DNA of 36,094 nt from contig JAOUGW010000007.1 of the NCBI GenBank assembly GCA_029865465.1, forward strand, positions 1-36,094, given 5' to 3'. Origin of the DNA: Gammaproteobacteria bacterium. Its GTDB lineage: Bacteria > Pseudomonadota > Gammaproteobacteria > Steroidobacterales > Steroidobacteraceae. Positions 6,487 to 27,850 of this stretch are shown here, piece by piece; within the stretch, counting starts at the first letter, position 1, and every line of letters starts with the position of its first letter. The notes under the pieces were generated by a model. That model worked only from the letters and a program-made list of their open reading frames with translations, did not search any database and had not been told where the DNA came from. The translations under genes and the position numbers were made by a program.

Positions 6487-6693
6487 ATGCTCATCAAGAT
6501 CCTCATCGTCGTCGTCCTCGCCGCCATCATCCTGAGCCTGTTTTCCGGGCTCTTCCACCTGGTGAAGGAAACGGGCGAATCGAAGCGCATGGTCAACGCG
6601 CTGACCGTGCGCATCGCGTTGTCCGTCGCGCTGTTCATCCTGCTGTTCATCGCCTGGTACGCGGGGTTGATCACGCCGCACCACGTCAGATAG
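6487..6693 (+). CDS. DUF2909-like twin-TM protein
   Basis: 68 aa, two TM segments; lies between SURF1 and ctaE, opposite in strand to both, an arrangement I recall from Pseudomonas cox loci. Confidence 0.8.
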   Translation: MLIKILIVVVLAAIILSLFSGLFHLVKETGESKRMVNALTVRIALSVALFILLFIAWYAGLITPHHVR

Positions 6694-6747
6694 GGGGGGG
6701 GGAAAGGGGAAAGGGGATAGGGGTTAGGGGTTAGGGGTTAGTCGGAA
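6693..6747 (+). repeat. Heptameric G-tract array copy A, ending in GTCGGAA
   Basis: G10-AAA-GGGGAAA-GGGGATA-GGGGTTA-GGGGTTA-GGGGTTA-GTCGGAA read directly. Confidence 0.9.
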
Positions 6748-6804
6748 GGTGGAACCTGAAAGATCTCTCGCAATCGAGGCCGTCACATTCGAGCTTCGCT
6801 AGCA

Positions 6805-6831
6805 AAGAAGGCCGGCATTGCCGGCCTTCTT
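6805..6831. terminator. Probable bidirectional intrinsic terminator
   Basis: Perfect 12-bp stem AAGAAGGCCGGC-att-GCCGGCCTTCTT between convergent DUF2909 and ctaE. Confidence 0.85.
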
Positions 6832-6863
6832 CGTTCGGTTAGGCGGAAAGGCGTCAGTCTGCG

Positions 6864-6900
6864 TTCCGACTAACCCCTAACCCCCAACCCCTATCCCCTT
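6864..6900 (-). repeat. Heptameric G-tract array copy B, inverted relative to A, ending in GTCGGAA
   Basis: Minus strand reads AAGGGGATAGGGGTTGGGGGTTAGGGGTTAGTCGGAA. Confidence 0.9.
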
Positions 6901-6905
6901 CTTCG

Positions 6906-7787
6906 TCAGAGCCAGTAGACGAAGATGAAGAGCCCCAGCCAGACCACGTCGACGAAGTGCCAGTACCAGGCCACCCCCTCGAAGGCGAAGTGCTGCTTGG
7001 GCGTGAAGTGGCCCTTCATGACGCGCAGCCAGATCACGACCAGCATGATGGCGCCGAGCGTCACGTGCAGGCCGTGGAAGCCGGTGAGCATGAAGAACGT
7101 CGAGCCGTAGACGCCGCTGCCGAGCGTCAGGTTCAGCTCGGTGTACGCGTGGTGGTACTCGGTCGCCTGCAGGTAGACGAACGCGAAACCCAGCAGAAAC
7201 GTCGCCGCGAGGAAAGTCTTGAGCACCCCGCGCTTGCCCGCCTGCAGCGCATGGTGGGCGATCGTGATCGTCACGCCCGAGGACAGCAGCAGCGCGGTGT
7301 TGATCGCCGGCAAGCCGAACGCCGGGATCGTCTCGAACGCGCCGCCTACGGCCATCGGGCCATTGGTGGGCCACGCCGGCTCGTAGTCCTTCCACAGGAA
7401 CAGGTTGCTCAGGAACTTGGTGCCCTCGCCGCCGAGCCACGGCACCGACAGGTTGCGCGCGTAGTACAGCGCGCCGAAGAACGCGGCGAAGAACATCACC
7501 TCCGAGAAGATGAACCACATCATCCCCATGCGGAACGAGCGGTCGACGCCGGCGTTGTACAGGCCCGCCTGGTTCTCGCTGATCACCGTGCCGAACCAGC
7601 CGTAGAACATGAACAGCACGGCGGCGAAACCCGCCCAGAAGATGATGGGTCCGATACCCACGCCGTTCAGCAGCGAGGCCGCGCCGAGCATCATGACGAA
7701 CAGCGAGACCGCGCCGATGATGGGCCATTTGCTGCCGTGCGGGATGTAGTACTTCCCCGCGTCGTGCGCGGTGTCTGCGTGGGCCAT
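6906..7787 (-). CDS. ctaE: Cytochrome c oxidase subunit III
   Basis: 293 aa; GFHGLHVTLG and AWYWHFVDVVWLGLF motifs. Confidence 0.95.
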   Translation of the reverse strand: MAHADTAHDAGKYYIPHGSKWPIIGAVSLFVMMLGAASLLNGVGIGPIIFWAGFAAVLFMFYGWFGTVISENQAGLYNAGVDRSFRMGMMWFIFSEVMFFAAFFGALYYARNLSVPWLGGEGTKFLSNLFLWKDYEPAWPTNGPMAVGGAFETIPAFGLPAINTALLLSSGVTITIAHHALQAGKRGVLKTFLAATFLLGFAFVYLQATEYHHAYTELNLTLGSGVYGSTFFMLTGFHGLHVTLGAIMLVVIWLRVMKGHFTPKQHFAFEGVAWYWHFVDVVWLGLFIFVYWL

Positions 7788-11781: not shown

Positions 11782-12501
11782 CTAGCGCCGCACGGCAGCC
11801 AGCAGTGTCTCCCGCAGGCGCACGCCACCGCTGATGTCGAGCACGGCATGGCCGAACGCGGACCTCTCGGGCGTCCAGCCCGTGATGGCGAGCGGCGGGG
11901 TGCCCAGCAGCCGCTCGAGGGTGGCCAGGTTCTCGGGCAGGCGCTCGAACCCGGGGTCGATTCCGTTGGCGATCCACCCCAGCAGGCGGCAGCGGCCCGC
12001 CACGTGGATGGCTTCGGCGGTGAGACGGGCATGGTTGAGGCAGCCGAGCGTGGCCCCCACCACCAGGATCACGTCGAGGCCGAGGGTTTCGGGCAGGTCA
12101 CTCAGGAAACCTTCCGGGTGCAGCGGCACGCGCCATCCGCCAGCGCCTTCGACGAGCGCGAATTCCGCGTCCACCGTGACCCGCTCGTACCACTGCGACA
12201 GCGAGCTCAGCGGCGTGACTTGTCCGGCTTCCGCCGCTGCGAGGTGCGGCGCAATGGCCGGCTCGAAGCACCACGGGTTGATGTCGGCGTAGGGCAGTCG
12301 CACCGGCGCGGCGGCCTGCAGTTCGAGTGCGTCGGCGTTGCGGAGCGGCTCACCCGGACTACGGCGCTCGCTGCCGCTGGCGATGGGTTTCAGGCCGACT
12401 GCCCGCACCCCTTCCGCCGCCAGCAGCCGCAGGATCGCGGCGGAGATCGCCGTCTTGCCGACGCCGGTGTTGGTGCCGGTGATGAAGAGGCCGGGTGTCA
12501 C
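11782..12501 (-). CDS. bioD: Dethiobiotin synthase
   Basis: GTG start; MTPGLFITGTNTGVGKTAISAAILR (P-loop) and VEGAGGWRVPL motifs. Confidence 0.95.
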   Translation of the reverse strand: MTPGLFITGTNTGVGKTAISAAILRLLAAEGVRAVGLKPIASGSERRSPGEPLRNADALELQAAAPVRLPYADINPWCFEPAIAPHLAAAEAGQVTPLSSLSQWYERVTVDAEFALVEGAGGWRVPLHPEGFLSDLPETLGLDVILVVGATLGCLNHARLTAEAIHVAGRCRLLGWIANGIDPGFERLPENLATLERLLGTPPLAITGWTPERSAFGHAVLDISGGVRLRETLLAAVRR

Positions 12502-12507
12502 GAGGAA

Positions 12508-12541
12508 GGGGATAGGGGATAGGGGATAGGGGATAGTCGGA
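12508..12541 (+). repeat. Heptameric G-tract array copy C: (GGGGATA)x4 followed by GTCGGA
   Basis: Four perfect GGGGATA units at 12508-12535 then GTCGGA at 12536-12541. Confidence 0.93.
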
Positions 12542-12617
12542 GGTGCAGTTGTTATTCAAACAGGTTATTCAAATACATCAATTCTTGATATTAGACAACC
12601 GTATTAAACATATAAGA

Positions 12618-27154: not shown

Positions 27155-27850
27155 CTACCAGAGATAGAAGAACGCGAAGATGAAGACCCAGACGAGGTCG
27201 ACGAAGTGCCAGTACAGGCCGGCGATCTCGACGACCTCGTAGTTGCCCGCGCGTTCGTAATCGCCGCGCCAGACCCTGAGGGCCACGACGACGAGGTAGA
27301 TGACCCCGGCCGAGACGTGCAGTCCGTGGAAACCGGTGATCATGAAGAATGAAGCGCCGAACTGGGCCGCGCCGAGCGGATTGCCCCACGGGCGGATGCC
27401 CTCTTCCAGGATCAGCTTGGTCCACTCGAAGGCCTGCATGCCGACGAACGTCGCGCCGAAGCCCGCGGTGATCAGCATCAGTGCGGTGGTGCGGGCGCGG
27501 TTGCGGCGGTAGCCGTAGTTGACCGCCATGGCCATCGTGCCGCTGCTGCTGATCAGGATGAACGTCATGATCGCGATCAGGATCAGCGGTATGGGCTGGC
27601 CGCCGAGACTCAGCGCGAAGACCTCGCTCGGGTTCGGCCAGGGCACGGTCGTCGACATCCGCACGTGCATGTACGAGGTCAGGAAGCACGAGAAGATGAA
27701 GGTGTCGCTGAGCAGGAAGATCCACATCATCGCCTTGCCCCAGTGCACCGGGAAGGCCTGCTTGTCCGACGAGAAGTCCGTGACGACGCCGGGCAGTCCC
27801 TCGACGACGCCGGCCGGCGCGATGTGTCCCGACATGGTTTCGACTGCCAT
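27155..27850 (-). CDS. Heme-copper oxidase subunit III (second tandem copy)
   Basis: 231 aa; [10 protein letters not shown] and [20 protein letters not shown] motifs. Confidence 0.9.

What the first reader, a model, noticed from the sequence alone, without database searches (positions are those of the whole stretch)
6693..6900. Symmetrical composite: stop - G array - GTCGGAA - terminator - TTCCGAC - C array - stop
Between convergent DUF2909 and ctaE, inverted copies A and B flank a perfect 12-bp terminator stem (6805-6831). Each array starts at or within a few nt of its gene's stop codon and is G-rich in that gene's mRNA. Both transcripts would therefore carry a potential RNA G-quadruplex in the 3' UTR, and the two arrays could alternatively pair with each other. 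This could affect termination, mRNA 3' stability, or represent an inverted pair like those formed by REP/REPIN elements.
Basis: partly seen in the sequence, partly recalled or inferred. Interest (0 to 1): 0.66.

Follow-up and report, generated by a model that had tools for sequence, protein, structure and literature searches.

The report
Inverted G-repeat arrays bracketing a terminator
The symmetrical structure is real and is one of about 60 such elements scattered at gene ends in this bacterium; inverted arrays of this kind are known from Xanthomonas, but here sister species keep the elements in the same places while swapping the repeated unit for a different one, which shows that the ability to form a G-quadruplex is not the conserved part.

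Summary
Observation confirmed. Window 6693-6900 holds an inverted pair of (GGGGNTR)n arrays, each ending in TTAGTCGGAA, bracketing a 12-bp GC stem between DUF2909 and ctaE. It is one locus of a family: 104 exact (GGGGNNN)3GGGG matches in this 3.36-Mb genome, about 59 loci, 32 of them inverted pairs. 40 of 48 array edges that face a gene's 3' end lie within 13 nt of the stop codon. Pairs also occur between co-directional and divergent genes. A 48-bp palindromic core recurs at nine unlinked loci, so the elements behave like small dispersed (REPIN- or foldback-like) repeats; no RAYT was linked to them. At this very locus the sister genome keeps both genes, the interior and the stem but carries 9-mer GGAAGGGTA arrays; a third species has non-G4 AGTGATT heptads; three congeners have a comparable GC stem and no arrays. 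So the stem does not need the arrays, and G4 potential is not what is conserved, although four G-tracts are strongly preferred for the G4-capable unit only. Closest precedent: GGGAATC inverted arrays of Xanthomonas (Rehm 2015). Verdict: new variant of a known kind; its striking feature is unit turnover at fixed sites.

The parts
6693..6737 (+). Left arm: G array (ten G, then GGGGAAA, GGGGAAA, GGGGATA, GGGGTTA, GGGGTTA, GGGG); its first G is the last base of the DUF2909 stop codon
6738..6748 (+). Border TTAGTCGGAAG of the left arm
   Evidence: border shared by most arrays in the genome, 44 hits against 1 for the reversed pattern
6805..6831 (.). 12-bp perfect inverted repeat with ATT loop, a terminator-like native stem enclosed by the element
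   Evidence: conserved in G004 (AAAGAAGGCCGGCAGTGCCGGCCTTCTT), comparable GC stems in G001/G003/G005/G006; not scored by the consensus scan
6863..6873 (-). Border TTAGTCGGAAC of the right arm (reads GTTCCGACTAA on +)
6874..6898 (-). Right arm: four G4 tracts GGGGATAGGGGTTGGGGGTTAGGGG on the ctaE sense strand, outer edge 7 nt from the ctaE stop codon
6487..6693 (+). DUF2909 gene (68 aa), left neighbour
   Evidence: orthologues in relatives
6906..7787 (-). ctaE / cytochrome c oxidase subunit III, right neighbour
12508..12543 (+). Single half-element of the same family: (GGGGATA)3GGGG + ATAGTCGGAGG, 6 nt from the 5' end of the minus-strand ORF 11782-12501
   Evidence: its interior is conserved in G007 next to 9-mer arrays

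Best explanation
The window holds one long-spacer member of a lineage-specific, genome-wide family of small non-coding elements. Each arm is a short tandem array plus the border NTAGTCGGA. Arms sit singly or as inverted pairs around a short, often palindromic core, and preferentially abut stop codons. Shown: the family, its anatomy, its position bias, the dispersed 48-bp core, and different repeat units at fixed orthologous sites in sister species. Inferred: the elements spread as non-autonomous, hairpin-forming repeats (REPIN- or foldback-like) and survive at gene 3' ends because little is harmed there; their arrays are then remodelled and replaced by slippage and recombination. At ctaE the element brackets the native terminator-like stem and is not part of it. 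When both arms are transcribed they should pair with each other; when only one is, the four-tract array could form a G-quadruplex, which probably constrains the array length of this unit type.
For: 104 array matches, 59 loci, 32 inverted pairs, always G array first; border enriched 44 to 1; 48-bp core at nine unlinked loci, inner identity 0.69 against 0.31 shuffled; arrays at stop codons, 40 of 48 edges within 13 nt; same core type with heptad-G or TAGTGAN arrays; orthologous sites with different units, including this one, eleven arms at eight loci with conserved outer and inner flanks; the family is nearly confined to this clade.
Against: No mobiliser found; no target duplication or clean empty site of a canonical 100-bp element demonstrated; positions shared with sisters are old, so no recent movement was seen. 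Unit replacement by slippage alone does not obviously explain why most loci of a genome use the same unit. All genomes here are fragmented assemblies, and arrays sit at several contig ends. G-tract purity and the four-tract peak hint at some selected function.
Confidence: 0.6

Rival explanations
1. The arrays are selected 3'-UTR RNA elements: a four-tract RNA G-quadruplex (or the arm-arm hairpin) directly after the stop codon protects the mRNA 3' end or helps termination, and the inverted copy serves the opposing gene.
For: Arrays abut stop codons on the sense strand; exact four-tract peak only for the G4-capable unit, 86 of 105 against 7 of 19 and 8 of 51; G-tract purity 452 of 456 in border-ascertained arrays; the same preferences in Xanthomonas (PMC4692102).
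Against: Orthologous sites carry units that cannot form a four-tract G4 (AGTGATT) or form it poorly (GGAAGGGCA); congeners have no arrays at this site; pairs also occur between divergent and co-directional genes.
Confidence: 0.2
2. Plain microsatellites: arrays arise in place by slippage from purine-rich sequence at gene ends, without any mobile element; inverted pairs arise by chance or by template switching between arms.
For: Composite arrays with 9-mers outside and TTAGGGG inside (L260, L264) suggest unit switching by slippage from the outer AGGAAGGGG; C arrays reach 17 units.
Against: Shared border and 48-bp core at unlinked loci; a large share of loci are inverted pairs, always in one orientation; arms of a pair are only slightly more alike than random (0.777 against 0.737, p = 0.03), so template switching is weak.
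Confidence: 0.14
3. True REPINs mobilised by a RAYT (Y1 transposase).
For: Inverted doublets with a palindromic centre, extragenic, downstream of genes; single Y1_Tnp genes in several congeners.
Against: None of seven Y1_Tnp loci checked carries an array or the border. The window genome's Y1 gene is flanked by a different inverted repeat, GTGCCGGTGTTACG. No Y1 hit in G004 or G007 (85% and 78% complete), which carry many arrays; hits in G003 and G008, which carry few or none. The border is neither a GTAG nor a CGTC tag.
Confidence: 0.06

Closest known systems
GGGAATC / GGGGA(C/T)T G4-forming heptad repeats of Xanthomonas and Nostoc (Rehm et al. 2015, PMC4692102)
   Same: G-rich heptads, preference for four units, about 70-75 inverted (convergently oriented) pairs per Xanthomonas genome, intergenic, within 50 bp of stop codons on the sense strand, usually kept at the same gene context between species
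   Different: Unit is GGGGNTR; arrays end in a defined border NTAGTCGGA; a 48-bp core family is dispersed; sister species carry a different unit at the same sites, which the paper does not report in the sections read
REPINs / REP doublets (Bertels and Rainey 2011, PMC3116915; GTAG- and CGTC-tagged REPs, Di Nocera 2013, PMC3733652)
   Same: Inverted doublets with hairpin potential, extragenic, mostly downstream of genes, dispersed in one genome
   Different: Arms consist of tandem arrays; no GTAG or CGTC tag seen; no linked RAYT
TAACTGA heptamer repeats of Beggiatoaceae and cyanobacteria (MacGregor 2015, PMC4679880)
   Same: Heptamer direct repeats at many intergenic sites of a gammaproteobacterial genome
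   Different: Those lie upstream of start codons and are almost all direct repeats without inverted pairs (one indirect repeat)
Foldback-type elements such as Galileo of Drosophila (PMC3573991, abstract only)
   Same: Inverted arms built of internal tandem repeats around a variable middle
   Different: Eukaryotic, much larger, with a known transposase source; analogy only

Membership tests
Rehm-type G-rich heptad inverted arrays | Heptad G-tract repeats dispersed genome-wide, mostly intergenic | tested here: met
   104 matches, 59 loci, 2 inside predicted genes
Rehm-type G-rich heptad inverted arrays | Preference for four units | tested here: met
   65 of 84 border-linked arrays have exactly four tracts
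Rehm-type G-rich heptad inverted arrays | Convergently oriented pairs close together | tested here: met
   32 of 59 loci
Rehm-type G-rich heptad inverted arrays | Sense-strand position near stop codons | tested here: met
   40 of 48 edges within 13 nt
Rehm-type G-rich heptad inverted arrays | Unit GGGNATC | tested here: not met
   Unit is GGGGNTR here; GGGAATC seen in Lysobacter and Xanthomonas controls
Rehm-type G-rich heptad inverted arrays | G4 formation in vitro | not testable with these tools
   CD needed
REPIN | Inverted doublet of a short palindromic repeat, hairpin-forming | tested here: met
   48-bp palindromic core at nine loci; long hairpin predicted at the window locus
REPIN | RAYT gene in the genome flanked by the same repeat | tested here: not met
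   Single Y1_Tnp with a different inverted repeat; no arrays at seven Y1 loci; genome 91% complete
REPIN | GTAG or CGTC tag at one end | tested here: not met
   Border reads NTAGTCGGA
REPIN | Mobility (new insertions, empty sites) | tested here: inconclusive
   Array-free homologous intergenic regions in G001/G003/G006, but divergent; no clean empty site
Intrinsic bidirectional terminator | GC stem followed by a U run | tested here: inconclusive
   Perfect stem 6805-6831 with T-rich 3' half, but the scan found none by its rule
Intrinsic bidirectional terminator | Arrays needed for the terminator | tested here: not met
   GC stems without arrays in three congeners; function itself not tested

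The most novel reading that the evidence does not exclude
The repeated unit of a whole genome's arrays is rewritten in place, between conserved flanks at many sites, by a trans-acting process (ectopic gene conversion from a current master unit, or templated array synthesis), so that sister species carry different 'dialects' of the same elements.
Probability: 0.17. Interest if true: 0.78.

Novelty: new variant of a known kind. Interest (0 to 1): 0.5.

Why it matters
Rehm et al. left the role of G4-capable heptad arrays open. This clade offers a natural experiment. The same element positions carry a G4-capable unit in one species, a 9-mer unit in its sisters and a non-G4 heptad in others. That allows G4-dependent effects to be separated from effects of position or hairpin formation. 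It also argues that such arrays behave as evolving repeat populations rather than as terminator parts, and it raises the question of how a repeat unit is exchanged at many fixed sites.

Tried and rejected
Terminator symmetry as the cause: rejected, because comparable GC stems occur without arrays and pairs also lie between divergent and co-directional genes. RAYT mobilisation: searched in 36 relatives, no link. Arm-to-arm template switching: weak signal only. Convergent-gene enrichment: 14 of 43 against 41 of 240 (p = 0.03), lost when gaps under 60 bp are excluded (p = 0.2). Rfam: only sub-threshold hits, the best being plant/animal miRNA precursor models fitted to the long hairpin. Canonical 100-bp element in plasmid and phage collections: none.

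Full report
What is there. Between DUF2909 (plus strand, stop 6691-6693) and ctaE (minus strand, stop 6906-6908) lies an inverted pair of G-rich heptad arrays, 6693-6737 and 6874-6898. Each ends on its inner side in TTAGTCGGAA. They enclose 136 bp that hold a perfect 12-bp inverted repeat at 6805-6831. The array motif occurs five times in the window and never in 100 dinucleotide-preserving shuffles. The finding is accurate, with small corrections: the two arrays differ in tract number, the shared border is NTAGTCGGA, and the consensus scan does not score the stem as a terminator.

A genome-wide family. The window's genome (3.36 Mb, 367 contigs) has 104 matches to (GGGGNNN)3GGGG. I fetched the DNA around the listed ones. 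They merge into 59 loci; 32 are inverted pairs, always G array first and C array second. The arrays mostly run into NTAGTCGGA[AG]. Searching for that border alone gives 44 hits against 1 for the reversed pattern. Of 84 border-linked arrays away from contig edges, 65 have exactly four G-tracts. In the 38 heptad-G arrays found through the border alone, the three inner tracts are G in 452 of 456 cells, while the spacers vary, mostly within (A/T)T(A/G). Across 369 genomes sampled from the class, only 10 have any such array, and none besides the window's genome has more than 13 matches.

Core. Twenty-nine distinct loci have both borders. Nine share a 48-bp interior (TAGTCGGAGGAGnAGCTGCnGCATCnGG...CTGCACCTCCGACTA) whose inner 30 bp are 69% identical against 31% for shuffles; others have different, often palindromic interiors of 35-62 bp, and some, like the window's, enclose longer intergenic DNA. 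One of the nine (loci L052 and L273, the same place) carries TAGTGAN heptads instead of GGGG heptads, so core and array are separable modules.

Position. Using a codon-usage gene caller on 333 kb, 40 of 48 array edges that face a gene's 3' end lie within 13 nt of the stop codon, and some arrays overlap the stop codon, as here (TAGGGG); 13 of 32 edges that face a 5' end are that close. Among the 32 pairs, 8 lie between convergent genes, 9 between co-directional and 3 between divergent genes; 1 is inside a predicted gene and 11 are cut by a contig edge. A convergent setting is therefore not what makes the pair.

Relatives at this very locus. In G004 (ctaE 94% identical) both genes, the interior and the stem are conserved, but both arms are 9-mer arrays (GGAAGGGTA and the like). 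In G005 (80%) the arms are AGTGATT-type heptads, ending in CTAGTCGGAAGG, and a GC stem lies outside the pair. G001, G003 and G006 have a GC stem there and no arrays.

Turnover elsewhere. Exact counts of the heptad-G / 9-mer / TAGTGNN motifs are 88/18/61 in the window's genome, 7/245/2 in G004, 10/203/0 in G007, 3/0/15 in G002 and 17/0/8 in G005 (overlapping matches in long arrays count several times). Thirty-four of 56 array sites examined in G004 and G007 map to array sites in the window's genome, and most differ in unit. At eight loci (eleven arms) the outer gene flank and the inner sequence are both conserved between the window's genome and G004 while the array between them is heptad in one and 9-mer in the other (inside scores 20-44 against a null 95% of 16, null maximum 26). 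Some other sites have wholly different interiors, so both array replacement and whole-element replacement occur. Sites were chosen through arrays on both sides, so the rate of loss is not measured.

Interpretation. The family looks like a population of small non-coding repeats that disperse, tolerate gene ends, and renew their arrays. That they move is inferred from the shared core at unlinked loci; no transposase is linked. The single Y1 transposase gene of this genome has its own inverted repeats, and no such gene was found in G004 and G007. The sharp four-tract peak is specific to the G4-capable unit (86 of 105 arrays of at least four tracts, against 7 of 19 AGTGATT arrays and 8 of 51 9-mer arrays). 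This suggests that G4 formation constrains the length of that unit, but G4 potential is not what persists at the sites. If both arms are transcribed, the predicted fold is one long hairpin (-127 kcal/mol, z = -8.8).

Precedent. Rehm et al. 2015 (PMC4692102) described GGGAATC arrays in Xanthomonas with four-unit preference, 70-75 inverted pairs and a position just after stop codons on the sense strand; I saw inverted GGGAATC pairs in Lysobacter loci too. The present family is the same kind of thing in another gammaproteobacterial lineage, with a defined border and core, and with unit exchange between sisters as the new observation.

Noticed in passing
window 12508-12543; G007 locus L296 1-110: The second array of the window keeps its inner sequence in G007, but there the outer side is 9-mer arrays joined to the end of a different gene (it matches the gene end at L036): either an exchange between two elements or an assembly chimera at a repeat.
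   Followed up: partly
L168 (G000:C186), about 1360-2390: Single Y1_Tnp (RAYT-like) gene flanked by an inverted repeat GTGCCGGTGTTACG; a separate candidate REP system, unrelated to the arrays.
   Followed up: partly
L366, L368, L373 (G000 C30, C71, C275): Long perfect TAGTGAT heptad arrays (10-17 units) in the same genome, in contrast to the four-tract GGGG arrays.
   Followed up: partly
L066, L078, L056, L053, L061 starts; L032/L272 ends: Arrays sit at or near contig ends; G004 locus L263 spans both L032 and L272, so these elements break the assembly.
   Followed up: no
L308, L310, L317 (Xanthomonas sp. and Lysobacter sp. records): GGGAATC inverted pairs; in the Xanthomonas locus GGGACTC-type units stand beside GGGAATC, so unit change may also occur there.
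   Followed up: no
window 27164-27640: A second, distant cytochrome oxidase subunit III-like sequence (38% identical to ctaE) lies in the same window.
   Followed up: no
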